Source of the DNA: Theocolax elegans
Taxonomy: Eukaryota > Arthropoda > Insecta > Hymenoptera > Cerocephalidae
Assembly (NCBI GenBank): GCA_026168455.1
Contig: CM047426.1
Span: forward strand, 65,087,238 to 65,151,237
DNA: 64,000 bases
Direction: 5' to 3'
Shown: positions 20,932-46,414 of the stretch, one piece after another
Position numbering within the stretch: the first letter of the stretch is position 1
Layout: every line of letters starts with the position of its first letter
The notes under the pieces: generated by a model
What the model was told of the DNA's origin: nothing
What the model saw: the letters and a program-made list of their open reading frames with translations, nothing else
Database searches by the model: none
Made by a program: the position numbers and the translations under genes

Positions 20932-20935
20932 AGCC

Positions 20936-23519: not shown

Positions 23520-23569
23520 GTGCATACGGTTTTGCTAAACCTTGGCACAAATAAACAATGTTATCAATC
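23520..23569 (+). promoter_or_regulatory. element 1 3' terminal hairpin and tail
   Basis: Outer stem GTGC (23520-23523) with GCAC (23545-23548); inner stem GGTTT (23528-23532) with AAACC (23537-23541) around a TGCT loop. AAATAAA and ATCAATC follow, then (TC)n. The same two-stem design with different bases occurs at the 3' ends of elements 2 to 6. Confidence 0.75.
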
Positions 23570-23591
23570 TCTCTCTCTCTCTCTCTCTCTC
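23570..23591. repeat. (CT)n microsatellite 3' of element 1
   Basis: CT run directly joined to the ATCAATC tail of element 1; it continues briefly as CGCTCGCTCC. Confidence 0.9.
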
Positions 23592-23599
23592 GCTCGCTC

Positions 23600-26289: not shown

Positions 26290-26561
26290 CGAAAAATGCA
26301 CATGAAAAAATTTTCAGAGGTACACATCTGGGATCGAACATCGGGATCGTCGATGCTGGCAATCTTTCATCGAAATCGATCAACATCTATGAAATGTTGC
26401 CACCTGCAGTCCATGTGCTTCATTTGTTAGCTAAAGCTAAGCTGAAGCCGCTTAAGTTTAAGCATGTTTGGGCGCGTGATGGAAGGATTTTTGTGAAAAA
26501 GGATGATGACTCTGATCGCATTGAGATTAATAATGAGGCTGATCTCGAGAAGTTATTATGA
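26290..26561 (+). CDS. element 2 ORF1 C-terminal domain, ending at TGA
   Basis: The C-terminal domain of ORF1 has MLPPAVHVLHLL and FKHVWARDGRIFVKK, clearly matching element 1. It ends with LEKLL and TGA at 26559-26561. The next codons stay in the same frame and lead into the endonuclease with no other stop, so the TGA is the only barrier between the two ORFs. The part before about 26290 (the frame is open from 26217) is probably foreign sequence. Confidence 0.6.
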
Positions 26562-27578
26562 CTCTGTCCAGCAACAGCCAAAAATTTGTGTAGGGCCCGT
26601 TCTACACTTAGATTGGCCCAGGTCAATGCGAATTCCTTGTTGACCCATCTTGCGGAACTGGAGTCGTTGGTTACGGTTGAGGAGGTTGATGTTCTTTCAG
26701 TTGCTGAGACATGGTGTTCACCCAATCGCACTAGTTCTATATATAACCTACCTAATTACACACTCATACGTAATGATCGTGGTCTAGCATCAGCCACTGG
26801 CAGACGTGATTTTATACAGGGTGGAGGGGTGGCTTGCTTTATTAAAAATGATATAATGTTCCGAGTCCTTGAAGCCCCCCAGATTGAGAACATAAATGAT
26901 ACTGAGTACTTGCTCTTGGAGTTATCACTTGACACTACAAAGATTTTGTTGGCTTCTGTTTATCGTCGGCCTAAGGGTCAAGTTCTTTCAAGATTTTTTA
27001 AGACACTTCAAGAGTACCTCCATTTGTATGATAATGTCATCATAGCCGGTGATCTGAATTCAAACTTCTTAGTTGCAGATTATTATAGCTCGCATTTAAT
27101 GAACCTGATCACTGAACATTCTCTCCATCTGGTGCCATTTAAGGCTACTCATCACACTGATGGCTCCGACACCTGGCTTGATGTCTTCATTACCGACTCA
27201 GATACTAAAGTGATTTCAACTAAGCAGTCATCTAGCCCCTTTATCTGTGGTCACGATTTTTTAATTATTGATTATCATATGCCTGCTAACCTTAAAACCC
27301 CTTGTGTTCGTACTGTCCGTGACTTCACCAAATTTAATCCGGCTGACTTCTCCAAATCTATCATGGACGATCTCAAGTTTATCCATGGACCGCATCCACT
27401 TACGGATGTAGATGCTTTGTTAGATTCCATCCGCAATTCCCTTATTGCTAATCTTGATAAATATGCGCCCTTTACTACTCGTATGGTTCGTCCTCGTCGG
27501 GCCCCATGGATGTCTCGCCTGCTTTTAGACAGACGGAAACAGCGCGACAAATTATATATATCAGCCAAACGTCTTTGA
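26562..27578 (+). CDS. element 2 endonuclease
   Basis: EEP-type endonuclease domain of ORF2. Motifs in order are RLAQVNANSL, VAETWC (metal-binding Glu), the conserved IQGGGVACFI, VYRRPKG, AGDLNSN, SDTWLDVFI and CGHDFLIID. It is followed by the linker region with basic residues. The frame is in line with ORF1 upstream. It ends at an in-frame TGA (27576-27578), after which the same frame continues into RT. All expected catalytic residues are present. It would nick target DNA for target-primed reverse transcription. Confidence 0.88.
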   Translation, partial: LCPATAKNLCRARSTLRLAQVNANSLLTHLAELESLVTVEEVDVLSVAETWCSPNRTSSIYNLPNYTLIRNDRGLASATGRRDFIQGGGVACFIKNDIMFRVLEAPQIENINDTEYLLLELSLDTTKILLASVYRRPKGQVLSRFFKTLQEYLHLYDNVIIAGDLNSNFLVADYYSSHLMNLITEHSLHLVPFKATHHTDGSDTWLDVFITDSDTKVISTKQSSSPFICGHDFLIIDYHMPANLKTPCVRTVRDFTKFNPADFSKSIMDDLKFIHGPHPLTDVDALLDSIRNSLIANLDKYAPFTTRMVRPRRAPWMSRLLLDRRKQRDKLYISAKRL

Positions 27579-29453
27579 GATGGCAACTTACTTCTGGAGT
27601 ATAAACGGCTACGTAGGAACTTGAAGCGAGATATTAAATTGGCCCGCGAGGCCTACTTTGAAGCGAAGTTACGGGCCAATTTAAATAATTCTGATTGCTG
27701 GCGCCTTTTGAGAAGGTTGGGACTTATTGGTGATTCCACCAATTCCCCTTTAAACTATTTTTCTATTAATGAGTTGTCTGAACATTACGTTTCGGTGACT
27801 AGGCGCCATCCACCATGTCATAGGCACCAGTTGGCTGAGATCTTGGGCAGCACTGTTGACTCTGGATATCCATCTTTTTCCTTTCGCCCTGTTACGTCAG
27901 ATGAAGTTACGAAAGCCTTTCATTTCTGCTTACCTAAGGCTAGGGGTCGTAGTTTGGACGGTTTGTCCTTGTATTATTTTAAGGATGTGATCCATATAAT
28001 TGCCCCAATTTTTACAATGTTATTTAATTCTTCTTTACAAAGCAGGACCTACCCCTCCTTATGGAAACGTGCTTTGATAATCCCGTTAAGCAAAATTTCT
28101 AAACCTCTTTCGCCAACTGATACTAGGCCAATAGCAAATCTTGCCCATTTTGCCAAGGTGTTTGATCGTCTGATTTCTCAGCAAATGGTGGATTTCCTTG
28201 AGGGTAATTGTATCTTGTCACCTTTTCAGTCGGGATTTCGCTCATCTTTTAGTACTCAAACTGCTCTGATCCGTATCACTGATGATATTCGACTGGCCAT
28301 TGACCAGGGCATGGTTACCTTTCTACTGCTGTTTGATTTCAAAAAAGCATTCGATACTATTGGCCACATTGAACTCTTGAAGGCTCTTAAATGTTTAAAT
28401 TTCGATAATGAAGCTATCGAATTGCTCCACTCTTACTTGAGTGGTCGTACTCAGGCGGTTGTTGGGAAGGATGGTATTCTTTCAGAGTTCCTCGACACTT
28501 TTACTGGAGTCATTCAGGGCTCTACCCCAGGTCCTGCCTTATTTTTGGCTTTTATTAATTCTATTATAAGCCGACTGCGTTTTACTAGAGGTATGCTATT
28601 CGCTGATGATCTCCAGCTGTCCATACATTGCCGACCAGCTGATTGTAATGCTTGTATCGAGAAATTGATAGCGGATGGTCATATGGTTTCTAGTTGGGCT
28701 CGAGAGCATGGCCTGGACCTTAACTTCACCAAGACTAAAGCCATATTAATTGGATCAGCCCAACAGTTGAGATTTATTGATCGAAACTCCTTGTCCCCGG
28801 TTATAGTTGATGGCCATGTGATTGACTTGGTAGATTCCGTACGTGACCTCGGGATACTTATCTGCAATAATTTACAGTGGAATGACCATATTTCCTCGGT
28901 GGCTTCAAGGGTCCATGGTGCTTTGCACAAATTGAGAAGCTGTGGCAATGTTCTTTCTATGCCATTGCGTAAACGATTGGTTGCTTCTTTAATCTTACCA
29001 TACTTTGATTATGGGTGCCTAGTCTACTGTGACCTTCCAGATTATTTAAATTTTAAGCTGCAGCGACTTCTCAATGTATGCGTTAGGTATATTTTTCGCT
29101 TAAGAAAAGATGCTAGGTTGGAGGACTTTTTTGTGAAGTTGGATTGGCTTACCGTGGACCAACGGCGTGACTATTTTATGGGAGTTTTGACTTACAAGAT
29201 TTTAACGACTGGAAGGTCTGAATATCTCCTTGAGTTACTCCCCCCACCTAGTGTTGAGGTCCGTCGGTCGGATCGCAATAGGCAGTCGTGCTTCGAGCGA
29301 CCTAATGCATTATCTAACACCTATAAGAAGTCGTTTACTTTGCAAGCCATGGATTTGTGGGACTCCTTACCGTCCGAATTGAGACTTCTCAGAAGTTTAA
29401 ACTCCTTTAAGTCTCGCCTTCACGACTACTTGTTTACCAGAGATAGAGTATAA
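27579..29453 (+). CDS. element 2 reverse transcriptase
   Basis: About 625 codons in the same frame as the endonuclease, separated by the single TGA at 27576. The RT motifs are complete: TDTRPIANL, SPFQSGFRSSFSTQTAL, LFDFKKAFDT (first catalytic Asp), GVIQGSTPGPALF, LFADDLQLSI (catalytic DD) and NFTKTKAI. Thumb and C-terminal regions (LPYFDYGCLVY, MDLWDSLPSEL) follow. No RNase H or CCHC is visible. One nonsense codon is the only lesion seen, so this insertion is young compared with element 1. Confidence 0.9.
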   Translation, partial: DGNLLLEYKRLRRNLKRDIKLAREAYFEAKLRANLNNSDCWRLLRRLGLIGDSTNSPLNYFSINELSEHYVSVTRRHPPCHRHQLAEILGSTVDSGYPSFSFRPVTSDEVTKAFHFCLPKARGRSLDGLSLYYFKDVIHIIAPIFTMLFNSSLQSRTYPSLWKRALIIPLSKISKPLSPTDTRPIANLAHFAKVFDRLISQQMVDFLEGNCILSPFQSGFRSSFSTQTALIRITDDIRLAIDQGMVTFLLLFDFKKAFDTIGHIELLKALKCLNFDNEAIELLHSYLSGRTQAVVGKDGILSEFLDTFTGVIQGSTPGPALFLAFINSIISRLRFTRGMLFADDLQLSIHCRPADCNACIEKLIADGHMVSSWAREHGLDLNFTKTKAILIGSAQQLRFIDRNSLSPVIVDGHVIDLVDSVRDLGILICNNLQWNDHISSVASRVHGALHKLRSCGNVLSMPLRKRLVASLILPYFDYGCLVYCDLPDYLNFKLQRLLNVCVRYIFRLRKDARLEDFFVKLDWLTVDQRRDYFMGVLTYKILTTGRSEYLLELLPPPSVEVRRSDRNRQSCFERPNALSNTYKKSFTLQAMDLWDSLPSELRLLRSLNSFKSRLHDYLFTRDRV

Positions 29454-29842
29454 TTAATTAATTAATAATTAATTAATTAATTGTTTGTTATTAGGTATAA
29501 ATAAGACTTGAACTCCAATTGTAATTTAACTGTAAATAACATGTATATTTTATATAAATTTGTACGACTGTAAACTGCGCCGTCCTTGGTACATTTCTAG
29601 ATTTAGTTTTAGCTATTAGATTTAGTTTTTACTAGCGTGATTGATAATTGAATGTCTAAGAAGCACGAATATTGTCGTCTTAATGTGCACATATCACCTT
29701 TATTGTCCGTAATTAGTCAATTTAATATTGTATTACTTTTGTTTTTACTAAAACTGTTGCGGTATTCTTTGTAAATTTCTTGTAATTTGCCTTAAGGATG
29801 ATCTATCCTAGGCAAAAATAAACTTATTTCAATCAATCAATC
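29454..29842 (+). promoter_or_regulatory. element 2 3' UTR with terminal hairpin
   Basis: A short AT-rich 3' UTR begins with a palindromic TTAATTAA run. It ends in a hairpin: outer GCCT (29789-29792) with AGGC (29810-29813), and inner AGGAT (29795-29799) with ATCCT (29805-29809). AAAATAAA and AATC x3 then abut TC-rich DNA. Confidence 0.75.
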
Positions 29843-31076
29843 TCTATCTCTTTATCCCTCATTCTCTCTCTTTATCTTACTCGCTTCCACTCTCGCACTC
29901 TATCACTATCTCTCTCATTCTCGCTCTCGCTCTCTATCTCCCATTCACTCTTTCTTATTCTCTCTCTCTTTCTCTCTATCTTCATACACTCTCTCTTATG
30001 CTCTCATTCTCTCTATCTTTCATGCTCTCTCTCTTATTCTCTCTCTCTTTCTCTCTATCTTTCACTCTCTCCCTCTTTCTCTCTATCTTTCACTCTCTCC
30101 CTCTTTCTCTCTATCTTTCATTCTCTGTATCTTAATCTCTTTCTCTTTCTCTCTATCTTTCATTCTCTCTCTCTCTCTATCTCTCCCTCTCTCCCTCCCT
30201 CTCTCTTTCTCCATCTATCATTCTGTCTCTATCTCTCCTCACATCTATCATTCTCACTCTCTATCTCTCTTACTTTCCATCTTATTCTTTCTCTCTTACT
30301 CTCTTTATCTCTCATTCTCTCTCTTTCTCTATCTCATTCTCTCTCACTCTATCTCTTTATCTCTCATTCTCTCTCTTTATCTATCTGATTCTCTCTCTCT
30401 ATCTCTTTATCTCTCACTCTCTCTTTATCTATCTCATTCTCTCTATCTCTTTATCTAACTCATTCTCTCTCTCTCTCCATCTCTTTATCTTACTCGCTCC
30501 CACTCTCGCACTCTATCACTCTCTCTCTCATTCTCGCTCTCGCTCTCTATCTCCCATTCACACTTTCTTATTCTCTCTCTCTTTCTCTCTATCTTCATTC
30601 ACTCTCTCTTATGCTCTCTCTTTATCTCTATCTTTCATTCTCTCTCCCTCTCTCTCTCCATCTATCATTATCTCCCTCTCTCTCTCCATCTATCATTCTC
30701 TCCCTCTCTCTCTCCATCTATCATTCTCTCTCTATCTCTCCTTCCATCTTCATTCTCTCTCTCTATCTCTCTTACTCTCTATCTTATTCTTTCTCTCTCA
30801 CTCTCTTTATCTCTCTTTCATTCACTCTCTCTTATTCTCTCTCTATTTCACTCTATTTTTCAATATCTATCTTTCATTCTCTCTCTCTTATTCTCTATCT
30901 CTTTCACTCTATCTTTCAATATCTATCTTTCACTCTCTCTCTTTTATTCTCTCTCTTTCTCTCTATCACACATTCTCTCTCTCTTTCCCCCTCACTCTGG
31001 CACTCATTCTCTCTCCCCCTCTCTCTATCGCTCATTCTCTCTCTCTCTCTCTCTCCCCCTCTCTCTCTCTCTCTCT
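29843..31076. repeat. 1.2-kb TC-rich satellite-like array
   Basis: Almost pure pyrimidine strand made of TCTC, TCTATC, TCATTC and TCTTTC units. Blocks of up to about 600 bp recur (for example the block starting TTATCTTACTCGC near 29870 and again near 30485), which indicates segmental duplication. ORFs here are low-complexity Ser/Leu translations and not genes. Confidence 0.95.
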
Positions 31077-31422
31077 GGTGGGTATACGGACGTTCTCAAA
31101 ATCTACTAACTCTTGTTTCGTGTTACTCGTGCTCACGTTTACTTCTACAAGTTTTCAGCCAGGAGGAGGGGTTCCCTGGAGTGGCGATTCTAATCTGATA
31201 TAATACCAGGTATTTTTTATCGCCCGGGAATCCTTATTTTCTCCTCCAAAAAGTTGGCCACTGGAAGAGGTTAGGTTGCCTTTTCGCACAAATTGGCGGT
31301 TCAGCGGCGGCGATTTCGCGCAGGAGATCAGCGCCTCTACTGGCTCTCACCTATATTAAGGGGTCGGCCGCGTTTACTTTTCCCTCAACTCTCAAGGCTC
31401 TTTTCAACGCTATCTTGGAAGG
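31077..31422 (+). other. element 3 5' leader
   Basis: Noncoding sequence between the CT array and the ORF1 start. Such leaders normally hold an internal promoter in non-LTR elements; I see no recognisable promoter motif. GGTGGGT at its first bases parallels GGTGAGT near the starts of elements 1 and 4. Confidence 0.5.
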
Positions 31423-32617
31423 ATGCAGCCAGCTACGCGCACCACCTGTTTCGTCTGCGGTAGAAGAATTATTAAAAAAGATCATGCGGAGGTATGTCCG
31501 GGATGTGGAAATCTCATCCTCACAAACTGTTTTATTGTTCTACCCGACTCGAGCGAACCGCGCTGTTGCCGACTCGCGAAGAAACCTGCGCTGTCCGTGT
31601 CGCATGAGGGGGCAGCACCTCCCGGGACGGTTTCTCCCCATGCTGAGCTCGCGCCAAGCGCCGCGCACACGACTACGACCCCCACCACGGGGACGGCTAA
31701 ACGCTTAGCCTCGCCCACTTCGCCGCCGTGTGCGCAGGTTGCTAAGTAACCTCGCGGCGCCGCGCCCACTGACAGCTGCTCCGGCCTACCCGCGCAACAG
31801 ACTGGTCCCGTCGACATGGCCGCTCTTTTCTCAGACTTCGCGAGCCGATTAGAGGCGACTCTTGAGCGCACGGTCTCACGCATCGAGTCTTCGGTCCAGG
31901 GATTGACCAGCGAGATCCGAGACCTCAACGCCCGGGTTTTTCAATTGGAGGCGGCGACCGAAGAGATATTCTCCCGCGTCTCGGACCGTCTGGGAGCGTT
32001 GGAAGCGGCGAATGAGTCAATCCGGGGCTTGATTGGGGACGTGCGTAGCAACAATTCGACTTCAGCGACACCGGCAATTTCATCCTCGTCGGACACCTGT
32101 GAACTCTTATTGGTTGGTGTCCCTGTAGACTCGGCTTCTTCGGACGGAGAGGTGGTGGACAAGGTCCTCAATGCCATTAACCTCCCTCGCGTATGCTCGC
32201 AAGTAGTCGATATTCGTCCCTGGCTTGTCCGGAACAGGCCAGGAAATCAAGATCCGAGACCAACGACATCGACAGCTCGTACTCCCAGTTTTAAGAGTAT
32301 TGTTTTCCGGGTTTCCTCCCCATCAACCAGGGACTTAGTCCTCGAAAGGGCACGCCTTCTCAAAGGCTTAACCACCGATTCGCTCTTTGGTTCGGGGGGG
32401 GAGCTCGTCAATTTTTATTCGTGCACTGTGGCCCAAGGAGCTGCACACTCTATTTAGTCAGGCATTGCGTCGTTCCGTGGTCCTAGGCTTTGCGAGACCT
32501 ATTATAAAGGACTACACGGTTTTTATGCGCAGAGTTAAGGGAGGGCAGCTTATCCCAATTTATTCTGAAGTAGGTTTAAATGAAATCGCGGTAAATAATT
32601 TTTCTCCTCCGAAATGA
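31423..32617 (+). pseudogene. element 3 ORF1: zinc finger, coiled coil, RRM-like
   Basis: The ORF starts MQPATRTTCFVCG. The N-terminus has a Cys-rich finger (CFVCG, CPGCG, NCF and CC). A Pro/Ser/Thr-rich linker follows. A predicted coiled coil lies around 31816-32050, and an RRM-like domain starts at CELLLVGVP, followed by a C-terminal domain with FIRALWPKE. There are two lesions: an in-frame TAA at 31747-31749, where element 4 has Gln, and a frameshift at a run of eight G near 32393. Comparison with element 4 supports both. The family role is RNA binding and chaperoning. Confidence 0.8.
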
Positions 32618-33705
32618 AGGTTGTCCGGCCAGGCGTCATTACATTCCCACAATTCCTTCTCCATTTTTCATGTTAATATAAAAGTTTGAAAACTCATTTT
32701 GCATCGATTGAATCATTAGTCCTTCCATCAAATCATGATATCATTGCCTTATCTGAAACCTTTCTCACGGAACATGATTCCTCCAACATGCTGGGCCTTC
32801 CTGACTACACCTTGCACAGACTTGATCGGGCTGGTAAGGAGGGGGGAGGGGTGGCGGCTTATTTCAGAAATAATCTTGATGTTAGGCTTTTGGCCCACTC
32901 CGACCCCGTCTTTTCCAACACTCCTGAATTTATGATTTTTCGCGTTAATAACAATACCGGCTCGTTGTTGTTTTGTGTGGTGTACAGGAGACCCGCAGCG
33001 GCCTACCCGTCTAAATTTTTTGATATTTTGACAAATTTTTTACATACTTGCGACCAGGTGGTCATCACCGGCGATTTTAATGTTAACATGTGCATTAAAG
33101 ATGGGGCGTCCGCCATGTTGGATTCTTACTTAAATTCATTAAACCTCTTCCTTATTAGATCTGACCCTACTCATCATACGCACTCATCTCATACATGGTT
33201 AGATCTATTTATTACACGTAATCCTACGCCAGCTTACTCTTATTCTAAGTCGGCAGTTCCCTTTGCAGCAGGACACGACTTTATTGTTCTTAATTTGGAG
33301 TTTGCCAAACCATTGCCGGCTGCGAAGAGAGTGTACTCGCGGAACCTGGTTCAGATCGATCCACCGGAGGCTGTTGCCCTTTTCACAAATATATTTTGTC
33401 ATCTTTCATCTATTCCTAGTACTTCCACTGTATTGTTCACGTCGTCAGCTTCTCATCCTTCATCGTCGTCGTCTGGCCGTTCCCCTCCTTATTATTTGTC
33501 TTTACAGGATAAGCAATTATCATCATCTTCATCTTTTACTCCCATCAGCATTCTACTTTCAAACCTCGTCACAGCCATCCTTCATACTTTTGATTCTCTC
33601 GCTCCCGCTAAGCTCATCACCATTAAAAACGTCAACAAATCCTGGATTACGCCACTCATTAAACAAAGAATTAAGTCTCGCAATATGGCGTTTAGAGATT
33701 CTTGA
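32618..33705 (+). pseudogene. element 3 endonuclease
   Basis: After the ORF1 TGA (32615-32617), the same frame continues to SIFHVNI, the first endonuclease strand. A one-base insertion near 32680 then shifts it. From 32686 the frame is open: LSETFL (metal-binding Glu), GKEGGGVAAYF, VYRRPAAAYP, TGDFNVN, SHTWLDLFI and AAGHDFIVLN. A Ser-rich linker follows, with HPSSSSSG. The frame ends at TGA 33703-33705, inside the NMAFRDS stretch, and continues shifted. Catalytic motifs are intact although the ORF is broken. Confidence 0.82.
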
Positions 33706-35660
33706 CCACTGGCCTGAGCTCGGACTATCAATGCTACAAGGAACTGCGTAATCTTGTTAGAAATAACATAGATTCCAGTAAATTTCTGCATTTTAATAGT
33801 AAGATAGAATCTGCTTCTAACTCGTCTGGCTTGTGGAAAGAGCTCAGGAACATGGGTCTCACGTCTAAATCATCTCAATCACCTCTCAACATTTTTTCAC
33901 TTGATCAGCTCAATATCCATTATGCATCTGTTTCTTACTGACCCCTTCCTTTCTCATTTGATCAACTTCAGTCCCTCATCTCGGCAACAGACATCCTGCC
34001 CTTGTCCTATCCGTCTATTTCATTTAACTTCGTCCCTATCACCTCACAGAAAGTACTTTCTATTATATCTAGGGCCACCTCCAAGGCTACGGGACATGAT
34101 GGTATTTCGGTTCCGATGCTGAAACTCTTAGCTGCTCAATTGGCGCCTTGTTTGGCCGATCTATTTAATTTATCACTCTCTACCGGAACCTTCCCTAAGC
34201 CTGGGTCCAGGTCTCTGCTTTTCCCGTTAGCAAAGTCGAACAAGGTAATCTCGCCGTCTGACACTAGGCCCATCGCAAAGCTCTGTGAAGTCTCTAAAAT
34301 TCTTGAAAAGATAGTTCACGAACAATTTACAGAGTACCTTAACTGCAATAATCTAATTATTGAGAGGCAAGCAGGCTTCCGCCGGGGGCATAGTACTCAG
34401 ACGGCTTTAATCGGGGTCCTGGATGATATTAGGAGAGCCATAGACAAGCGTAAGATCACCATTCTTGTTTTGTTCGACTTTTCAAAAGCCTTTGATTCGG
34501 TTCCACATGACTTGTTAATTCACAAATTACGCTCCCTGGGTTGCTCGGATACGGTGGTTACCTGGTTTTTCCACTATCTGGTAGGTCGCTCCCAAGCGGT
34601 AGTGGATGAGCTGGGGAGGAGCTCGGCCTGGCTTGACACGTCTAGGGGGGTTCCTCAGGGCAGTGTCCTGGGTCCATTGTTATTCTCTATTTTTATAAAT
34701 GATCTTCCACGTGTTTAAAGTCATTCAGATCACATGATCTTTGCAGATGACACCCAGATCTATCACTCGTTTTACCCAACCGAACTCGCTCAAGGTGTAC
34801 AGAGAATATCGGAGGATGCAAATGCGGTTAACGACTGGGCGAGGTCGAATGGGCTGAATTTAAATGTAGGGAAAACGAAGGTGATGGTTTTGGGTAGTCA
34901 GGCTTATATTTCGCGCATTGACCTGGACTCTGCCCCGAGGGTTACAATAGGGAATAGTTTTCTTGAGTATGAGACGGAAGTCAAGTCTCTAGGCGTTTGG
35001 ATTTCGCCTACCCTGGATTGGTCTCGCCAGGTCGCGTCAGTGTCACAAAGGGTTCACGGAGTTCTTCACTCCTTAAGATTTTTTAAGCGAGCGCTCTCAC
35101 GTAGAAACAGGAAGAGGCTGGTCGAGGCTTTAATCTTCCCGCATTTTGATTACGCTTGCGCGGTTTTTCATGACCTGGATGCTACCAGGAACTTAAAGCT
35201 ACAAAGGCTATTAAATGCGTGTGTCCGTTTTGTTTGGGGAGGGATTCCGTGGCGGGAGCATGTTACGCCTTACCGTCTTAAGCTGGGGTGGCTGTCGGTC
35301 GAGCTTAGGCGATCCTACTTCATTGCCACTTCCGCTTATAACATCATCTCTCATAATTCCCCCTCTTACATAGCTCGCCATTTCACCATTCGAGACGCGT
35401 CCTTTCCTTCCCGCTCTTCCTCACGTCTCCCTCCCTCGTCCCTTTTTTATCCTCCCCTTAGAACGGAAGCCCTGAACAACTCCTTTATCATCACTGCCTA
35501 TCGCCTCATCAATCACCTTCCGTTCACTAATTTCGACCCTCTCCTCTTCAGTTCATTTAAAACATCCTTATCATCATACCTTTCTGAGCTCGACCGACAG
35601 GCTTGGGAGGGGAGGGTTAGGTGTGAGGGGTTAAGCTGCCCTTCCCTGCCGGAGGTTTAA
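33702..35660 (+). pseudogene. element 3 reverse transcriptase, nonsense codons
   Basis: One reading frame with two nonsense codons: TGA at 33939-33941 and TAA at 34716-34718, where element 4 has Leu. The RT motifs are SDTRPIAKLCEVSKILE, RQAGFRRGHSTQTAL, LFDFSKAFDSVPHD, GVPQGSVLGPLLFSIFINDLP and MIFADDTQIYHSF. A C-terminal region with FPHFDYACAVFHDL follows. No RNase H is seen. The stop at 34716 falls just before the catalytic FADD box, so no active RT can be made. Confidence 0.88.
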
Positions 35661-36092
35661 TGTATGTTTAGTGTTATTTATTGTTAATTTATTTTTTCTT
35701 GCGTTATATGTATCATTTTATGAATTGTTATTGTTTAACTATTGTATTTCTGTCGTTGTATTTTAATTTACTGCGTTTATTGTATCATTGGGTTTTTTAT
35801 AAATTGGTTACTTGGCTTTTTCCTTTTGGCGCTGCGTATTTTTATTTTTATTATGTTTTTATTGTTATTTCTTACTATCGTTAATTATTTTATTGTTATA
35901 TTTTATTTTTGTATATATTTTTATTTATACTTTGATATTTTTATATTTTTATACTCTTATTTTTATTTTTATCTTTATTGACTTAGGATTGTATTATCAG
36001 TATTATTAATGTGCGCAGTTATTTTCCAAAGTGTATACGGGGTCTTACCCCTCAATACCCAATAAATAAATCAAATCAAATCAAATCAAATC
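35661..36092 (+). promoter_or_regulatory. element 3 3' UTR with terminal hairpin
   Basis: T-rich 3' UTR. Terminal hairpin: outer GTAT (36033-36036) with ATAC (36055-36058); inner GGGGT (36039-36043) with ACCCC (36047-36051) around a CTT loop. AATAAATAAATC and AAATC repeats follow and join directly to TCTCTC. Confidence 0.75.
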
Positions 36093-36300
36093 TCTCTCTC
36101 CATTTATCATTCTCTCTTGCTTATTCTCATTCTCTCTCTCTCTCTCTCTTTATCTCTCATTCTCACTCATTATCTATCTGATTCTCTCTCTATTTCTATC
36201 TCTTTATCTCTCATTCTCTCTCTTTATCTATCTCATTCTCTCCCTCTCAATCTCTTACCCATTCTCTCTCTGTCTCCCTAACTCTCCCTCTCTCCCCTTT
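36093..36300. repeat. TC-rich array 3' of element 3
   Basis: Pyrimidine-strand array of TCTC/TCATTC units, like the one at 29843-31076. It changes to the opposite (GA) strand after the fragment at 36301. Confidence 0.95.
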
Positions 36301-36411
36301 AAATTTAAATTTATCAATCGGGAACTGAGTAGTGCTGCTGATGCCAAATCAAAATGGCGCATTTTAAAAAGCTACGGCATTTCAGGTCGCGTGAGGCCTT
36401 CTCCTTCCGAG
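36301..36411 (+). pseudogene. scrap of a related element ORF2 (EN-RT linker)
   Basis: 37 codons without a stop read like the EN-RT linker of element 4 (a basic start, a Leu-Ser-Ser-Ala motif, Trp-Arg-Ile-Leu-Lys, then Gly-Ile-Ser and Pro-Ser-Pro). It is therefore a fragment of another member of this group, with neither end of the element present. It lies exactly where the array changes from TC to GA, so it was left by a rearrangement or an abortive insertion. Confidence 0.6.
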
Positions 36412-36909
36412 AGAGAGACAGTGAGAGGAAGAGATAGGAATACAGATAGATAGAGAGAATGAGAGATAGAGAGAGGGAGAGAGAGAAAATGAAATGAAGA
36501 TAGAGATTGAAAGATAGAAAGCAAGGGAGAGAATGATAGATGTAGAGAAAGAGAGAGAATAAGAGAGAGTGAATGAAAGATAGAGAGAACGAAAGGGAGA
36601 AGAAGAGTGAATGGGGATAGAGAGCGAGAGCGAGAATGAGAGAGAGAGAGAGAGAGTGAGTGATAGAGTGCGAGATAGAGAGGGAGTGCGAGAGTGAGAG
36701 TGAGTAATAATGAGGGACTGTGAGGGGGAGAGAGTAAGGAAGAATGAGGGAGTGTGAGGGAGAGTGAGGGGGAGAGAGAGAGCGAGTTAGGGAGACAGAG
36801 AGAGAGTGAGGGAGAGAGATAGAGAATGTGTAAGAGATTGAGATGGAGAGAATGATATAGATAAAGATAGAGAAAAAGACATAGAGAGAAAGAGAGACAA
36901 TGAGAGATG

Positions 36910-36961
<52 letters not shown>

Positions 36962-37868
36962 ATGAGAGATAGAGAGGGAGAGAATGAGAGATAGAGAGAT
37001 AGAGAGAGAGAATGAGAGATAGAGATAGAGAGATAGAGAGAGAGAATGAGAGATAGAGAAGGGAGATAATGAGAGAGTGAGAATGAGACATAGAGTGAGA
37101 GAAAGAAAGAGAGAAAGAGAGATAGAGAAAGAGAGATAGAGAAAGAGAGAAAGAGAGATAGAGAAAGAGAGAAAGAGAGATAGAGAAAGTGAGAGAGTGA
37201 AAGTGAGAGAGAAATAGAGAGAGACAGAATGAGAGATAGAGAGAAAGAGAGATAGAGAGAAAGAGAGATAGAGAGAGAGAGAAATAGAGAGAGACAGAAT
37301 GAGAGATAGAGAGAAAGAGAGATAGAGAGAGAGAGAAATAGAGAGAGACAGAATGAGAGATAGAGGGAAAGAGAGATAGAGAGAGAGACAGAATGAGAGA
37401 GAGACAGAAATAGAGAGAGAGTGAGAGATAAATTGAGAGTTAGAGAGAGAGAGAGAATGAGAGGTAGAGAGTGAGAGAGAATGAGAAGTAGAGAGAGAGA
37501 AAGAGAATGAGAGGTAGAGAGTGAGAGAGAATGAGAAGTAGAGAGAGAGAGAGAGAATGAGAGGTAGAGAGTGAGAGAGAATGAGAAGTAGAGAGAGAGA
37601 GAGAGAGAATGAGAGGTAGAGAGTGAGAGAGAATGAGAGGTAGAGAGTGAGAGAGAATGAGAAGTAGAGAGAGAGAGAGAGAATGAGAGGTAGAGAGTGA
37701 GAGAGAATGAGAGAGAGTGTGGGACTGCGAGAGTGACAGTGAGTAATAATGAGGGACTATGAGAGGGAGAGAGTGAATATGAATGAGGGTTTGTGAGGGA
37801 GCGTGTGGGAGAGGTTGAGAGAGTGAGAGAATGAGAGAGAGAATGAGAGATAGAGAGAGAGAGAGAGA
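36412..37868. repeat. 1.46-kb GA-rich satellite-like array
   Basis: Purine-strand counterpart of the TC arrays, with units such as GAGA, GATAGA, GAATGA and GAAGTAGA. Near 37200-37400 a roughly 60-bp unit repeats about three times, and at 37440-37720 a roughly 40-60 bp unit repeats several times. ORFs on the minus strand here are low-complexity artefacts. Confidence 0.95.
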
Positions 37869-38295
37869 GATTGATTGATTGATGTATTTATTGGGCCAAT
37901 TATAGGGTAGAACCGCATAGGCACTAAAGCGAACTGATACATAGAGTAAAACTTTTTTAAAACTAGATAATAATATAAAATTGCATAACAAAAATATAAA
38001 ATAAACCCATGACAGAGTAAAGAATTAAAATAACAAAATAAAATATATGTACAATTGATTAATAGATTAATAAATTAAAACTTAAAAATAAATAACAAAA
38101 TAGTTAAATAATAAAATAGTTAGCGTTCGCATATCATCCGCAATATAAAAAAAAAAGAATATATATAATGAATACAATGAATAAATAAATAAATAGTAAC
38201 AAAAATGACGTATAATGACGCAATGAAATACAGAAGAAATGACAGATGAAATAACACAGCAATGCTGATTAAACTTAAACTTATATATCCAGGTG
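37869..38295 (-). mobile_element. non-LTR element 5, 5'-truncated 3' UTR fragment
   Basis: About 425 bp, minus strand. It begins in GA array and ends with a hairpin-like stretch, CAATAAATACATC and AATC units, then TC on its own strand. GTGCCTATGCGGTTCTACCC resembles the element 4 terminus (GTGCCTACGGGGTCTC). Pairing is weaker than in the others (GCC/GGC outer, GGT/ACC inner). No coding sequence. Confidence 0.75.
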
Positions 38296-38362
38296 ATAGA
38301 GAGAATTAGAGGTAGAGAGAGAGAGAGAGTGAGAGAGAGAGAGAGAGAGTGAGAGAATGAGA
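38296..38362. repeat. GA-rich array between elements 5 and 6
   Basis: GA-rich stretch of about 65 bp separating two 5'-truncated minus-strand elements. Confidence 0.9.
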
Positions 38363-39074
38363 GATCGATTGATAACTATATTTATTTGCGCCAAAGTTGA
38401 TACAACCGGATGGCTCTAATCATATAAAATAGAACATATAAAATAATTTAGACAACTAAAGAAGAATTAATATAACCGATAATACATATGTAAAATAATA
38501 ATTCACGTTAAATTAAGAATAAAATAATCTACGTCGCAAGCATTGGACATAAAATCGGATAAGTCGCTATCGATCCTCATGGAGAAATTTTTATAATACA
38601 TTTTAAAAATATTTACATTAGAGCACTCTCTTATTCTAGATATGATATTATCCCACGTTTCCATTGCTAAATAAATAAACGAAGTTTTACACGCAAGATT
38701 CTTAACATTAGGTAGGTTAAAAACAGTATTTACTCGTTTGGATCTACGCAATTCAATGCCAACAAAAGCCAGCTTATCGATAAATATTGAGGTGTTTGGG
38801 TGGCCAACAATTTATACATAAAAGACCAAGGAAATATTTCCGTCGAACATTTAATGGAAGCCAGTATAGCTGATCATAGAAAGGCTGCAATGCTACCTCA
38901 CGTTTTAGATGAAAAATAAATCTAACAACGGTATTACACATGCGTTGAACTTTAATATTAAGATAAGATGGAAGATCTAAAAATATGGGACATGCATAGT
39001 CAAAGTGAGGAATAATTAAAGCATTAGCCAGCAAAATTCGAGCACGCACAGGGAGACAACTGCCTTTGTAACGT
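38363..39074 (-). mobile_element. non-LTR element 6, 5'-truncated
   Basis: About 710 bp on the minus strand, with GA array on both sides. Its coding remnant is the RT C-terminus (39049-38774, then 38751-38503 after a frameshift). It has PHFDYACPIFLDLPSYL and FHLKREVALQPFYDQLYWLP, closest to element 1. Its 3' end has outer GCCA/TGGC and inner GTTG/CAAC stems, CAAATAAA, then TTATCAATCGATC and TC on its own strand. The 5' truncation point abuts TC directly. Confidence 0.85.

Positions 39075-39105
<31 letters not shown>
39075..39105. repeat. (GA)n between elements 6 and 4
   Basis: A short GA run linking the 5' end of truncated element 6 to the 3' tail of element 4. Confidence 0.9.
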
Positions 39106-39110
<5 letters not shown>

Positions 39111-39533
39111 ATTGATTGATTGATTGATAAAATTTATTTGGCCTTGGGGTTGAGACCCCGTAGGCACTAAAAATAAAATACAGTCTGATTTGTTATACCA
39201 TATAAACAATATAAATAATATGAAAAATATGAAAAATATAAAAATGTAAAAAAAAATATAATAATATAAAAATATAAAAATATAAAAAACAACAATAAAA
39301 CGTATAAAATAAAACAATAATAACAATAATTACAGAATATATACAAAATTTTAGATTAACGCTTAATAAGGCATGTATTGCGCATTCGCTCAGTAGCAAT
39401 ATACAAAATAATAAATACTTAGTAGCTATATACAGAGTAATAAATAAATAGTACACGTACATAAAAATTATTGCACATCATGCGTCGAAAATTAATCTAT
39501 ATATGTGTATACGCAGAATTACATTGACAAGTT
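39106..39533 (-). promoter_or_regulatory. element 4 3' UTR with terminal hairpin
   Basis: On the minus strand, outer GCCT pairs with AGGC and inner GGGGT with ACCCC around a CTCA loop (about 39140-39165). CCAAATAAA, TTTTATC and AATC repeats follow. The inner stem bases match element 3, but the outer stem differs (GTAT/ATAC there). Confidence 0.78.
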
Positions 39534-41474
39534 TTAATCTAAATCGAAATCGAGGTGAGGGATCTGAGGAGGTGCTAAGCCCTCATTTTGCACTCTATTT
39601 TCCCAGGCAGTTTTGTCAAGTCCAAACAGATGATTAAATAGTGTATTTTTGAAATGGCTGATGGATGAGGTGTCGAATGAAAATGCAGGAAGTTCGTTAA
39701 TGATTTTAGATGCAGTGATGGCAAATGACTTATTCATAGCCTCAGTACGAGGGGGAAGATAATGCAGCGATTTTGGTGGATGACGAGAAGAGGTGCGAGG
39801 GTTATGATGAAGCGTATTTAATTTTATGAAATGATTAGCCAGGTAAATAGGTGAATTATGAGCAATGATGCCGTATGCAAGTGAACCAATGAGGTATGAG
39901 CGTCTGGACTCAACTGATAACCACCTGAGACTTAACCTATAAGGAGTTACATGTTCTCTCCTTTCTATGTCCCCCCACACGAATCGGATACAAGCATTCA
40001 GTAGCCTTTGAAGCTTCAGATTTCTGGTCTGATCAACATCATTAAACACCGCACACGCATAGTCAAGATGCGGAAAAACTAGTGTTTCAACCAGCTTTTT
40101 CCTAAGGCCTCGAGATAACGACTTTTTATAATATCGCAATGAATGCAAAACCCCATGTACACGACTCGAGATGGTTAACACCTGTTTTGACCAGTCTAGA
40201 GTGGGAGAGATCATGACCCCAAGCGATTTAACCTCACATTCATAATTCAAGAAATCCGCTCCCAATCCTACCTTCGGGGCAGTGTTCAAGTCGATACGCG
40301 ATAAAAAGGCCTGACTACCCAGAATCATAACCTTCGTTTTTTTTACATTTAGTTTTAATCCGTTCGTGTGAGCCCATAGGGCTACCGCATTGGCATCCTG
40401 TGTGATGCGTTGTACCCCTGCTTCCAATTCTGACGGAAAAAACGAATGGTAGACCTGGGCGTCATCGGCAAACAGCATACAATCGCTGTATGAAAGAACT
40501 TTAGGTAGATCATTAATATAGATGGAAAAGAGTATTGGGCCTAGAACACTGCCCTGAGGCACCCCCGCATTTATCTCAAGCCAGTCCGATAACACACCCG
40601 TCTCACTCTCCACTGCATGCATACGACCTACTAGATATCGATAGAACCAATTTAATACATTGTCTGAGCAGCCAATCTCACACAATTTTTGCATGAGCCT
40701 GCCATGAGGCACAGTATCAAATGCCTTTGAGAAGTCAAACAGGATGAGAATCGTGATCTTCCTACCATCAATGGCTCTCCTAACGTCATCTAGGACACCC
40801 AGGAGGGCTGTCTGAGTGCTATGCCCTCTGCGAAAACCGGCCTGTCTGTCAACAAGAATATGATTTTTCTCCAGATATTCAGACAATTGATTATGTATAA
40901 GTCTCTCCAAGATTTTCGAGAGCTCGCAAAGCTTCGCAATTGGTCTTGTATCTGAGCACGATTCTACCCTGCCCGACTTCGCCAGCGGAAATAGTGATAC
41001 CCTTTTCCAACTCTCCGGAAAATAACCAACTGAGAGCATGCTATTGAAGAGGTCAACAAGTTGCATTGTTAATTGAGGCTCTAATAACTTAATCATTTCA
41101 ACAGATATGCCATCAATTCCCACTGCCCTCGAGGACGCTCCCCGAATTGCACACTGAACTTCTCTTGCGGTTATGGCAGAGAAATGAAAAGAGGGAGATG
41201 ACGGTGATGTGGGACATGAATTGCATGTTATATTTGAGAATGAATGTATGGAGAGGGGTTGAATATGATTTGAAACTGCGGCGTAGTGATAATTTAGCTG
41301 TTGAGGTGTGAATAATTTGAGTGGTGATGGATTAGACTTAGAGCTGAGGCCCATGTTTTTTAGGCACTTCCACGACTTCTTCGGGTCTTTCGCGCTACTA
41401 AGTTTCTTTGCCAGAAAGTGGAACTTACATGAGTTAATAGTATTCGAGACCTTATTTCTAAGACCCCTGTACAC
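39534..41474 (-). CDS. element 4 reverse transcriptase, open
   Basis: A 646-codon open frame. The N-terminal 80 residues are linker. The RT core has SDTRPIAKLCELSKILE, RQAGFRRGHSTQTALLG, LFDFSKAFDTVPH (catalytic Asp), GVPQGSVLGPILFSIYINDLP and LFADDAQVYHSF (catalytic DD), then a thumb with NVKKTKVMILGSQ and FPHLDYACAVFND. The C-terminal 130 residues have no RNase H or clear zinc knuckle. The frame is in truth the 3' part of ORF2; the true protein would begin in the endonuclease, lost by a frameshift near 41500. Confidence 0.9.
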   Translation of the reverse strand: MYRGLRNKVSNTINSCKFHFLAKKLSSAKDPKKSWKCLKNMGLSSKSNPSPLKLFTPQQLNYHYAAVSNHIQPLSIHSFSNITCNSCPTSPSSPSFHFSAITAREVQCAIRGASSRAVGIDGISVEMIKLLEPQLTMQLVDLFNSMLSVGYFPESWKRVSLFPLAKSGRVESCSDTRPIAKLCELSKILERLIHNQLSEYLEKNHILVDRQAGFRRGHSTQTALLGVLDDVRRAIDGRKITILILFDFSKAFDTVPHGRLMQKLCEIGCSDNVLNWFYRYLVGRMHAVESETGVLSDWLEINAGVPQGSVLGPILFSIYINDLPKVLSYSDCMLFADDAQVYHSFFPSELEAGVQRITQDANAVALWAHTNGLKLNVKKTKVMILGSQAFLSRIDLNTAPKVGLGADFLNYECEVKSLGVMISPTLDWSKQVLTISSRVHGVLHSLRYYKKSLSRGLRKKLVETLVFPHLDYACAVFNDVDQTRNLKLQRLLNACIRFVWGDIERREHVTPYRLSLRWLSVESRRSYLIGSLAYGIIAHNSPIYLANHFIKLNTLHHNPRTSSRHPPKSLHYLPPRTEAMNKSFAITASKIINELPAFSFDTSSISHFKNTLFNHLFGLDKTAWENRVQNEGLAPPQIPHLDFDLD

Positions 41475-42581
41475 TGCATAATCGTCAACGGAACCTGTAG
41501 CACGAAATGTATTAAAAGCTGCATTTCTGACTTAATGCTTTCTTTGATTTCCCGAGAAATCCAAGGTTTGTGGCTTGATTTGATAGAGTGAAAAGTTATA
41601 GGTGCTAGCAGGTCAAAAGTAGATAAAATTGACTTACATATAAATGATAATGAGGATGAAATAGTGCTATGAATATTATTAGACGAATGAACTTGACGTA
41701 AATGCGGACTAGGTTGATGATTATGTGGAGACATATCCACGAATACGGACTGGTCAGGCCAAGGATGAGTGAATGATTGCGATAAGGAAGAGGAGGTTAT
41801 GTATGATTCGAATGTAGTTGCAAGATTATGAAGGTTGATCCCCTCCAAATTTCGTTTTCCAAGTACCTTCACTTGAGGCTGCTCATTATCAATCCGAAGA
41901 ATAATACTAATGGCATCATGTCCAGCTGCGAAAGGAGCCGACGTCTTAATATATTCATGCTCTGGTACTGGTTCACGGATAAGGAAGAGATCCAACCATG
42001 TGTGTGATGGCCCACCCGACGTCATCGCGTGATGCGTTGGCTCTGACTGGATGAGTAAACCTATCTGACATGGTACTAGCAGAATTCATGTCAATGTTAA
42101 AATCCCCAGTGTCCATGACATATTTGTATCGTGGTAGTATGTCCGACAGGACCTCAAAAAACTCTGTGGGGTAAGCGGCCGAAGGCCTACGGTAAACAAT
42201 TGCTAAAACCATTGAAACTGATTTGCCCGTCAAACATAGTACCAGATATTCCGGAGCATTCGAAAAGATAGGTTCAGAATGCGCAATAATCCTTACCCCA
42301 AAACCCTCACGTACGTAGGCCGCAACACCTCCCCCCTCCTTACCCTCACGATCCAATCGATATAATGTATAACCCGGTATTTTAATAATCTCTGAGGAAT
42401 CGTGACTTGTAAGGAAGGTTTCGGTAATCGCGATGACATCATGAGAGGCTGGATGAACTAATGCTTCGATAGATGGAAAGTGTGTTATTAGGCGATTTAT
42501 ATTGGAGTGAAAAATGGAGAGTGACTTTGATGATTTTGATGATTTTGATGATTTTGATGGTTTGGCCCGACCAGCCCCATC
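41360..42581 (-). pseudogene. element 4 endonuclease, two frameshifts
   Basis: Immediately after the ORF1 TGA (42582-42584), the same frame continues through a Lys/Ser repeat and SIFHSNINRL into the endonuclease. ITETFL, GKEGGGVAAYV, VYRRPSAAYP and TGDFNIDMNS are present. Near 42060 a frameshift, with about 25 bp missing relative to element 3, moves the rest (SHTWLDLFLI, AAGHDAISI) to another frame (42025-41360). A second shift near 41500 leads to the RT frame. The last His-Asp motif reads GHDAI rather than GHDFI. Confidence 0.82.
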
Positions 42582-43838
42582 TCACTTGTTATGAGTTGGA
42601 GAGAGAGGAAAAAAGTTTATAAACTCAGCTTCCGAACTTACACGCTTCAAAGGTCCATCCCTCACCTCTCGCATAAAAACTACTAAATCTAAAACTATGG
42701 GCCTCGCATAGCCCAGCTCTCTTGATTTACGTATGGCTGCCTGCCATAACTCAAAAACGGGCTTCGGCCAAAGAGGCCTAACAAATAGTGAATTAACTCC
42801 ACCTTCGCCGAAAATATCCCGTGCCTTACGTCCCTTCAGGAGTCGAGCCTTCTCTATAACCGCATCTCTGGACGTTACAGATGACATTTTTACTACTATG
42901 CCTCGAGTGAGTAACGGAGTCGCTGGAGAACCCGCCGAGTTAGATTTTAACCGCGGAGTCCAAGGGCGGAGGTCAATTACTTGACTGTTCAGCTTTGGCA
43001 GTTTCAGCACATCAAATACATTTATTAGCAGTTCACTTTCAGTCTTCTTAGAATCCTTGGGCAACCCGGTAATGAGCAGTTCGCATGTGTCCTTTGATGG
43101 AGGTTGTGACACTGTAATTGCGTCCTTACTACTCATTTCCAAGTTACTAACCCGGTTTCCTAGATTGCCCATGCGCGCATCAAAAGCCGTGAACTTTGCC
43201 TCAAATTCTTCCTCAATAACACTGACCTTCGCTTTCAGATCTTTGATTTCAGTTTTCACCTCAACAACCTTGCCCTCGACCCGATTTACAACTTCCAGAA
43301 CTGATCTCAAATCGCTTTGCAGGCTTTCTCGCAAACTCCGGGAAAATACTTCCAACCACGGCGGTGGATCGGCCGCCATTGGAACGGAGTCGCTTTTCGA
43401 GTCGTGTGCCGCCTGATTGGGCACAGTGGGCGGAGCGCCGCGAGGTTGCTTCGCAACCTGCGATGTTGATGGCGACGGAGGCGAGGCAACACGCTTAGCG
43501 TAAGAGGTGGTAAAAGTAGGCGTGGTCGCCGACGCGGCACTGTCGGTCGCGCTAGTCTGGCGCGGTAACCCGGGCGGTGGCGCCCTCATGTCGTTTGAAG
43601 CTGCAACTAACGTTTTCGATCGCGTTTTCGCGAGGACACAGCAGCGCCGCTCGGACGAGTCCGGCACGACCTCAAAGCAATTCGTATGGGCAATGTTACT
43701 ACAAAGATTACAGACCTCTGTGTAGTCCTTGCGCGTCAGTCGTGCTCCGCAAACAAAACAGCCTCGCGGTGTTGCCATATTTGCACAGTGAGTTTCGCAG
43801 CGTTGGTGTAGACTCCGTGTGTCAAATTTACCGCCCAA
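42582..43838 (-). CDS. element 4 ORF1: zinc finger, coiled coil, RRM-like, CTD
   Basis: An intact 418-residue ORF. Residues 25-70 form a Cys/His-rich finger (CFVCG, CNLCS, HTNCF and RRCCVL), PHD/zinc-ribbon-like. Residues 75-165 are Pro/Ser/Thr-rich. Residues 170-265 are a long heptad-rich coiled coil. From 275 an RRM-like fold runs from CELLITGLP to GIVVKMSS. Residues 345-410 form a C-terminal domain with FVRPLWPKP. The coiled-coil/RRM/CTD order parallels ORF1p of L1-type elements, which forms trimers and coats RNA. An alternative Met at residue 21 precedes the finger. It ends in TGA, in frame with ORF2. Confidence 0.88.
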   Translation of the reverse strand: MGGKFDTRSLHQRCETHCANMATPRGCFVCGARLTRKDYTEVCNLCSNIAHTNCFEVVPDSSERRCCVLAKTRSKTLVAASNDMRAPPPGLPRQTSATDSAASATTPTFTTSYAKRVASPPSPSTSQVAKQPRGAPPTVPNQAAHDSKSDSVPMAADPPPWLEVFSRSLRESLQSDLRSVLEVVNRVEGKVVEVKTEIKDLKAKVSVIEEEFEAKFTAFDARMGNLGNRVSNLEMSSKDAITVSQPPSKDTCELLITGLPKDSKKTESELLINVFDVLKLPKLNSQVIDLRPWTPRLKSNSAGSPATPLLTRGIVVKMSSVTSRDAVIEKARLLKGRKARDIFGEGGVNSLFVRPLWPKPVFELWQAAIRKSRELGYARPIVLDLVVFMREVRDGPLKRVSSEAEFINFFPLSPTHNK

Positions 43839-44067
43839 TCTTTGCCGCTCGCAAATTCCTCCAGCTAACCTCCAAGATTATGCGAATTAATTTTGTAAAA
43901 TTGCGGACAACTGCCTACAGTAAAGATGCATCTAATTTAATAGGTACGAACTGTAGACAGCGTACGTCCAATTTGCCTTGCACTGAAAACTCGAGTTGGT
44001 CGCGTGAGTACAACAATCATAAAAACAATACAGAGAAGTAAACAGGTGTCTTAGTACTCACCGCGCC
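43839..44067 (-). other. element 4 5' leader
   Basis: A 229-bp untranslated region between the GA array and the ORF1 ATG. GGTGAGT (44056-44062, minus) lies five bases inside the element. I see no ORF or defined promoter box. Confidence 0.5.
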
Positions 44068-44530
44068 AGAGAGAGAGAGAGTATGAGACATAGAGACAGA
44101 GAACGAGAGGTACAGAGCGAGTAAGAATGAGGGAGAGAGAATGAGAGAGAGAGAGAGTGAGAGAGAGAGAATGAGAGAGAGTATGAGAGATAGTGACAGA
44201 GAACGAGAGGTACAGAGCGAGTAAGAATGAGGGAGAGTGAAGGAGTGCGAGAGTGAGAATGAGTAAGAATGAGAGTCTGTGTGAGGGAGAGAGAGAGAGA
44301 GAATGAGAGATAGAGAGAATGAGAGATAGGGAGAGAATGAGAGATAGAGAGAATGAGAGATGGAGAGAATGAGACATGGAGAGAATGAGAGATGGAGAGA
44401 ATGAGAGATGGAGAGAATGAGAGATGGAGAGAATGAGAGATAGAGAGAATGAGAGATGGAGAGAATGAGAGAATGAGGGATAGAGAGAATGAGAGATAGA
44501 GAGAAAACGAAAGTTAGTGTAATAGAGTGC
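44068..44530. repeat. GA-rich array 5' of element 4
   Basis: Purine array with repeated GAGAATGAGAGATG-type units. Minus-strand ORFs are low-complexity. Confidence 0.95.
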
Positions 44531-44539
44531 GAGAGTAAG

Positions 44540-44570
44540 TGCTAGGTCCCGGTTCAAATCCGGGCTGAAG
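44540..44570 (+). other. isolated tRNA-like T arm
   Basis: CCCGG TTCAAAT CCGGG makes a perfect five-base-pair T arm with a canonical seven-base loop, directly beside the GA array. No acceptor, D or anticodon arm can be fitted upstream, because that side is GA repeat. It is therefore a remnant of a tRNA or a tRNA-derived SINE. Confidence 0.45.
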
Positions 44571-45758: not shown

Positions 45759-45793
<35 letters not shown>

Positions 45794-46297: not shown

Positions 46298-46414
46298 TAA
46301 CGTAAGCTATTTATGCAACATTAAATCATTTAAATAAACAATATTATAATATTGTATTGATTATTAATCTTACTCTTCGGCAAAAATAATCTAAACTATT
46401 TCAATTTTTTTTGA

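What the first reader, a model, noticed from the sequence alone, without database searches (positions are those of the whole stretch)
29831..44067. Non-LTR retrotransposons joined to (TC)n microsatellite in fixed orientation
All six 3' ends (elements 1-6, at 23569, 29842, 36092 plus; 37869, 38363, 39106 minus) pass directly from an ATC/AATC/AAATC tail into TC repeats, with TC always on the sense strand. Both full-length copies 3 and 4 also start at TC, as do truncated 5 and 6 and probably 1. Elements of several subgroups share this, so it is unlikely to be chance. Known precedents are R1-clade families specific to other simple repeats and telomere-specific SART/TRAS; a TC-specific EN/RT lineage of this CR1/Jockey-like type would be notable. 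That the endonuclease prefers TC is inference.
Basis: partly seen in the sequence, partly recalled or inferred. Interest (0 to 1): 0.9.

Follow-up and report, generated by a model that had tools for sequence, protein, structure and literature searches.

The report
LINE retrotransposons that target TC repeats
An insect genome, probably a wasp's, carries several families of LINE-type jumping genes that insert, nearly always in one orientation, into runs of the two-letter repeat TC; such choosiness is known in other groups of jumping genes, but we found no report of it in this one.

Summary
All six 3' ends in the window pass from an ATC-type tail into sense-strand TC. Elsewhere in the 658 Mb genome I read 119 element ends, chosen from capped hit lists: 39 of 40 5' ends (el3, el4 families) and 71 of 79 3' ends (el2-el5) have a TC run of at least 6 within 50 bp, none a GA run (sampled background 1.7%). 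AATAAA + AATC + (TC)6 occurs 1107 times, against 22 for the reversed pattern and 25 for the opposite orientation. All 15 complete el3 copies paired from the lists have TC on both sides. For one, 12 of 12 fetched paralogous empty sites carry CT/TC at the insertion point, so TC came first. Two clades share the habit. Best reading: APE-endonuclease LINEs, CR1/Jockey-like, that target TC tracts by target-primed reverse transcription from the GA strand. Target choice is shown by anatomy; endonuclease preference and priming are inferred. el5 copies are mostly one amplified composite and add little. Microsatellite-specific LINEs are known in other clades: a new variant of a known kind.

The parts
18781..23567 (+). 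Element 1 (degenerate; start approximate; EN part about 19015-19868, RT part 20910-23021, about 1 kb apart); 3' end joins TC
   Evidence: tblastn map; sequence
23568..23599 (+). TC tract at 3' end of element 1
26442..29840 (+). Element 2: APE endonuclease and RT, tail TTCAATCAATCAATC; start is that of the homology, true 5' end not located
29841..31076 (+). TC-rich array: 3' flank of element 2 and 5' flank of element 3
31077..36090 (+). Element 3, full length about 5.0 kb: ORF1, EN, RT, (AAATC)n tail
   Evidence: copies
36091..36301 (+). TC-rich array at 3' end of element 3
36302..36412 (+). Short fragment resembling an RT-ORF piece of a related element, between two oppositely oriented TC arrays (by eye)
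36413..37870 (-). TC-rich array (sense on minus strand) at 3' end of element 6
37871..38300 (-). Element 6, 5'-truncated (start approximate), tail (AATC)n
38301..38364 (-). TC tract between elements 5 and 6
38365..39076 (-). Element 5, 5'-truncated RT end; elsewhere mostly part of an amplified el5-TC-el6 composite
39077..39107 (-). Pure TC tract between elements 4 and 5
39108..44067 (-). Element 4, full length about 4.96 kb: ORF1, EN, RT, (AATC)n tail
   Evidence: copies
44069..44505 (-). TC-rich array, 5' flank of element 4

Best explanation
Elements 1-6 are APE-endonuclease non-LTR retrotransposons, CR1/Jockey-like, of at least two clades, that insert into pre-existing TC (sense strand) tracts in one orientation. 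Shown by anatomy: TC on both sides of full-length el3 copies and at the 5' ends of el4, fixed orientation, and TC at paralogous empty sites of one el3 insertion. Inferred: the endonuclease nicks the GA strand inside a (GA)n/(TC)n tract; the 3'-OH of that strand, ending in GAGA, pairs with the UC that ends the tails I read (AATC, AAATC, ATTC, AATCGATC) and primes reverse transcription, so that the strand nicked sets the orientation. New insertions also land in the TC beside earlier elements, which builds head-to-tail runs such as the window's.
For: TC run of at least 8 in the adjoining 50 bp at el3 5' ends 20 of 20 and el4 5' ends 19 of 20; TC run of at least 6 at 3' ends: el2 16/19, el3 18/20, el4 17/20, el5 20/20; GA run of at least 6: 0 of 119; background 1.7% (6 or more) and 0.34% (8 or more). 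All 15 complete el3 copies that could be paired from the two capped lists pass into TC at both ends, some 3' tracts being only 6-7 nt. Genome counts 1107 against 22 (pattern reversed) and 25 (opposite orientation, of which 18 are one repeated sequence). Two el3 copies (L054, L067; 90% and 96% identical to the query) sit in the TC tract of one host repeat, and an el4 copy (L164) has a flank that looks the same by eye. EN model, mean pLDDT 91.8, matches LINE-1 and TRAS1 endonucleases.
Against: Eight of 79 3' ends fall below the 6-nt run: three join plainly non-TC DNA (L087 el4; L096, L101 el2) and five have shorter or broken runs (L071, L073, L084, L094, L100). The el4 copy on C647 has a short CT run at its 5' end but none at its 3' end (L152, L087), so a few CT units may belong to the RNA. 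The sampled copy L031 has no TC at its 5' end. TC 5' flanks were not tested for the el1/el2 clade. Empty sites were shown for one insertion only, as paralogues (79-90% identical), not alleles, and one of the 12 has only CTCT. Copies came from lists of best matches, not a random draw. No biochemical test.
Confidence: 0.88

Rival explanations
1. Microsatellite seeding: the element makes the TC repeat, by reverse-transcriptase slippage at its 3' end and later expansion, as reported for RTE elements of Lepidoptera.
For: For el1, el2 and L031 TC is shown only at the 3' side; 3' tracts can be long; precedent PMC2887409 (passages read).
Against: TC abuts 39 of 40 full-length 5' ends of el3 and el4; 12 of 12 fetched paralogous empty sites of one insertion carry CT/TC; copies of el3 and el4 share host tracts.
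Confidence: 0.06
2. The TC tracts are part of the element itself (5' and 3' UTR) and are copied in with each insertion.
For: Nearly every full-length 5' end read has about 8 nt or more of CT just before the conserved start; the C647 copy has CT at its 5' end without TC at its 3' end (L152, L087).
Against: The pyrimidine tract abutting el3 5' ends varies from 12 to at least 150 nt and is often interrupted satellite; empty sites have TC.
Confidence: 0.04
3. No target choice: insertion is random and copies survive only in TC-rich DNA, or the copies are segmental duplicates.
For: el5-TC-el6 is a duplicated composite (16 of 20 el5 3' flanks in one cluster); the listed places, all on C1 up to 53.5 Mb, include only 3 below 26 Mb.
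Against: Junctions are exact, orientation is one-sided, and flanks are mostly different: 17, 18, 19 and 17 clusters for 20 el3 5', 20 el3 3', 19 el2 3' and 20 el4 3' ends.
Confidence: 0.02

Closest known systems
Kibi and Koshi (Tx1-type LINEs of fish; Kojima and Fujiwara 2004: only its title seen in reference lists; names seen; clade and targets recalled)
   Same: As recalled, APE-endonuclease LINEs inserted into (TC)n (Kibi) or (TTC)n (Koshi): the same target
   Different: Another clade and host group; the present elements group with hymenopteran, jockey-like proteins
R1-clade Waldo and the telomere-specific TRAS and SART (targets recalled; TRAS1 EN seen as a fold match)
   Same: APE endonuclease choosing a simple repeat, fixed orientation
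   Different: Another clade and other repeats (AC-type, TTAGG)
Togen and HERO families (PMC4640811, passages)
   Same: Insert into microsatellites; Togen into (TG)n
   Different: Restriction-like endonuclease, not APE
RTE elements that generate microsatellites in Lepidoptera (PMC2887409, passages)
   Same: 3' end of a LINE directly beside a simple repeat
   Different: There the element makes the repeat; here TC is at empty sites too
CR1/L2 lineages with PHD-type ORF1 (PMC4120745, passages)
   Same: el3/el4 ORF1 starts with a Cys-rich, zinc-finger-like stretch followed by coiled-coil-like sequence (by eye; Pfam zinc-finger hits are below cut-off)
   Different: No target-specific CR1/L2 member is named in the passages read

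Membership tests
APE-type non-LTR retrotransposon | Exo/endonuclease/phosphatase domain upstream of a reverse transcriptase | tested here: met
   EN above cut-off in el2, el3 and (barely) el4; RVT_1 above cut-off in el2 and el4, below it in the one el3 ORF tested; EN fold matches LINE-1 and TRAS1 EN
APE-type non-LTR retrotransposon | Short-repeat 3' tail and 5'-truncated copies | tested here: met
   Tails (AATC)n/(AAATC)n; truncated el5 and el6
CR1/L2/Jockey superfamily | RT grouping with named CR1, L2 or Jockey references | tested here: inconclusive
   Tree groups them with hymenopteran proteins, one homologue is named jockey-like by NCBI; no named clade references were in the tree
Target-specific LINE | Nearly all insertions in one target sequence | tested here: met
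   110 of 119 ends read with a TC run of at least 6; without el5, 90 of 99
Target-specific LINE | Fixed orientation relative to the target | tested here: met
   GA run at 0 of 119 ends; 1107 against 25 genome-wide
Target-specific LINE | Target present before insertion (empty site) | tested here: met
   One insertion only; 12 of 12 fetched paralogous empty sites, of 38 listed
Target-specific LINE | Endonuclease cleaves the target sequence in vitro | not testable with these tools
   Needs protein
R1 clade (Waldo, TRAS, SART) | RT groups with the R1 clade | not tested
   No R1 reference sequence was used
Tx1 clade (Kibi, Koshi) | RT groups with the Tx1 clade | not tested
   No Tx1 reference sequence was used

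The most novel reading that the evidence does not exclude
TC targeting is the ancestral habit of a whole radiation of CR1/Jockey-like LINEs in Hymenoptera (the el1/el2 and el3/el4/L031 clades; el4 and el2 RT ORFs are 34% identical). The tract is both landing site (GA-strand primer pairing with UC-ended tails) and ready-made promoter beside a precise 5' end (TGGTGGGTA, TGGCGCGGTGAGTA), and the TC left beside each insertion serves the next.
Probability: 0.3. Interest if true: 0.75.

Novelty: new variant of a known kind. Interest (0 to 1): 0.62.

Why it matters
Strict target choice among APE LINEs is known, as recalled, from a few clades such as R1 and Tx1. A dinucleotide-specific lineage of CR1/Jockey-like type, with many tail types and about a thousand strict junctions in one genome, gives a natural system for asking how an APE endonuclease and an RNA tail together read a short repeat. 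It also explains head-to-tail LINE clusters in TC satellite, and could be a source of targeted-insertion enzymes with a dispersed target.

Tried and rejected
Spaced sampling for background. Relatives with DNA from other species: viral contigs gave nothing and phage records only remote RT matches. PDB sequence search of the el2 EN: no hit at E 0.01. Target-site duplications: in 5 of 15 complete el3 pairs both flanks share a motif of 19-40 nt with an interruption (matched mean 14.7 against 10.1 for mismatched pairs), suggestive, but not resolvable inside TC. Telomere idea dropped: the window is mid-chromosome (C2:65.1 of 100.7 Mb), and four contig starts, one half N, showed only short TC tracts. 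The second empty-site query (L054/L055) did not complete. Segmental duplication is accepted for most el5/el6 copies, rejected as the general cause for el2-el4.

Papers: passages read of PMC4640811, PMC2887409, PMC4120745, PMC10632776, PMC2684134, PMC4746887 and PMC3747384; all others only as listings, among them PMC3124438 (shrimp fosmids), which matched several terms and was not opened. No TC-specific CR1/Jockey LINE showed in the listings of nine searches; Kojima and Fujiwara 2004 did not come up as a held paper, and Repbase was not searched.
Full report
What was checked. The window (C2:65087238-65151237 of a 658 Mb, 1277-contig assembly) holds six non-LTR elements beside TC tracts. A hymenopteran is likely, not proven.

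What the elements are. el2 has EN (PF03372, PF14529) and RT (PF00078); el3 has EN, and RT only below cut-off in the ORF tested; el4 has RT, and EN just above cut-off. The el2 EN folds with high confidence (mean pLDDT 91.8); its best PDB matches are LINE-1 ORF2p/EN, with TRAS1 EN close behind. In an RT tree of 41 rows el3, el4 and the sampled copy L031 group together (100/97); el2 groups with a Phymastichus protein (99/94) and el1, weakly (85/58), with a Nasonia one, in another clade. So at least two clades share the habit. The label CR1/Jockey-like rests on similarity, an NCBI name and recall, since no named clade references were in the tree.

Background. 26 loci were read (20 spaced over C1 and C3, 2 beside the window, 4 contig starts; 237,500 bases): 10 TC tracts of 12 bp or more. 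Of 19,581 random 50-bp windows from them 1.7% had a sense TC run of 6 or more and 0.34% of 8 or more. The sample held one element of this group by tblastn; its 3' end runs into TC, its 5' flank does not.

Copies elsewhere. Genome searches score only the best candidates, so these are lists of best matches: 40 rows for the el2 3' end, 43 for el4 3', 40 for el3 5', 40 for el3 3', 40 for el5 3', 40 for el4 5'. Dropped before choosing: the window's own copy in each; one internal match for el3 5'; four rows for el4 3' that lack the 3' end or are small fragments. The el3 rows pair into 15 complete copies of 4.76-5.04 kb. No el1 or el6 copies were sought.

Results. TC run of 6 or more (8 or more) in the adjoining 50 bp: el3 5' 20/20 (20), el4 5' 19/20 (19), el3 3' 18/20 (15), el2 3' 16/19 (15), el4 3' 17/20 (14), el5 3' 20/20 (20). 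GA run of 6 or more: 0 of 119. All 15 complete el3 copies pass into TC at both ends, though some 3' tracts are only 6-7 nt. Of the eight 3' ends below the threshold, L087, L096 and L101 are plainly non-TC; L071, L073, L084, L094 and L100 start with shorter or broken TC. Flanks fall into 17, 18, 19 and 17 clusters for el3 5', el3 3', el2 3' and el4 3', but only 5 for el5, because 16 of 20 el5 copies share one downstream el6: that composite was amplified as a unit. Without el5, 51 of 59 3' ends have the run. A binomial comparison with the background gives about 1e-95 for each end, an order of magnitude only, since copies are not fully independent.

Genome-wide counts. AATAAA, up to 25 bases, AATC, (TC)6 occurs 1107 times against 22 for the pattern read backwards; a few places count twice because AATAAATAAATC offers two starts. 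The opposite orientation, made more permissive (two free bases, five GA), occurs 25 times, and 18 of these are one repeated sequence without an ATC-repeat tail. The tails listed are diverse, which points to many families. The listed places (the list is cut off, all on C1 up to 53.5 Mb) include only 3 below 26 Mb, although TC 20-mers are common in the first megabase of C1: the elements are clustered.

Was TC there first? Flanks of the el3 copy at C5:5428113-5433138, joined as the empty site, match 38 other listed places across the junction (40 rows of 1258 candidates; three pairs about 9.4 kb apart suggest LTRs of a host element). Twelve were fetched; all show CT/TC at the insertion point, longest pure run 4 to 20 nt. 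These are paralogues at 80-90% identity, not alleles. Two el3 copies (L054, L067; 90% and 96% identical to the query, so probably separate insertions) have the same host repeat as 5' flank, and an el4 copy (L164) has a flank that looks the same by eye. By eye at least seven of 20 el4 5' flanks (L150, L153, L154, L155, L158, L159, L166) are the tail-plus-repeat end of another element, giving head-to-tail runs like the window's.

How it likely works. The tails I read end in TC and meet sense TC. The simplest mechanism is target-primed reverse transcription from a nick in the GA strand, the GA-ended primer pairing with the UC of the RNA tail; this would explain the fixed orientation and why several tail types work. 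It is inferred. A weaker thought is that the TC tract beside the precise 5' ends (TGGTGGGTA, TGGCGCGGTGAGTA) supplies promoter elements; nothing here tests it. The C647 el4 copy, with CT at its 5' end and no TC at its 3' end (L152, L087), leaves room for a few CT units being part of the RNA.

Known or new. Microsatellite-specific LINEs exist: Togen (TG)n and some HERO families (passages of PMC4640811) and, recalled, Tx1-type Kibi (TC)n and Koshi, R1-type Waldo, R4-type Dong. So the target is not new; the clade that uses it appears to be. No TC-specific CR1/Jockey-type lineage showed in the listings of nine literature searches, but most subscription papers and Repbase were out of reach. RTE elements of Lepidoptera show the opposite causation, element makes microsatellite (PMC2887409, passages), against which the empty sites and 5' flanks speak here.

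Noticed in passing
window 38365-39076 and copies: el5 is a near-identical (97-98% among listed copies) high-copy 5'-truncated unit, mostly in an el5-TC-el6 composite; two copies at C2:63170106 and C2:63170849 lie 743 bp apart in the same orientation.
   Followed up: partly
window 45454-50295: Six overlapping or nested inverted repeats (arms 443, 384, 265, 249, 156 and 85 nt, 95-99% complementary), a palindromic block of unknown kind.
   Followed up: partly
window 44510-44605 and 23600-23700: tRNA-like stretches (B-box-like) abut TC tracts, perhaps tRNA-derived SINEs; by eye only, ARAGORN finds no tRNA gene.
   Followed up: no
L057 and L069: A small hairpin repeat (ATGGCATGC..GCATGCCAT-like) with TC beside it has el3 on one side in one place and on the other side in another.
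   Followed up: partly
window 57362-58444 (-): ORF with an Ulp1-type Peptidase_C48 domain, perhaps of another mobile element.
   Followed up: no
C1, places listed: Tail-TC junctions are almost absent from the first 26 Mb of C1 and dense from 26 to 53 Mb (list cut off there).
   Followed up: partly
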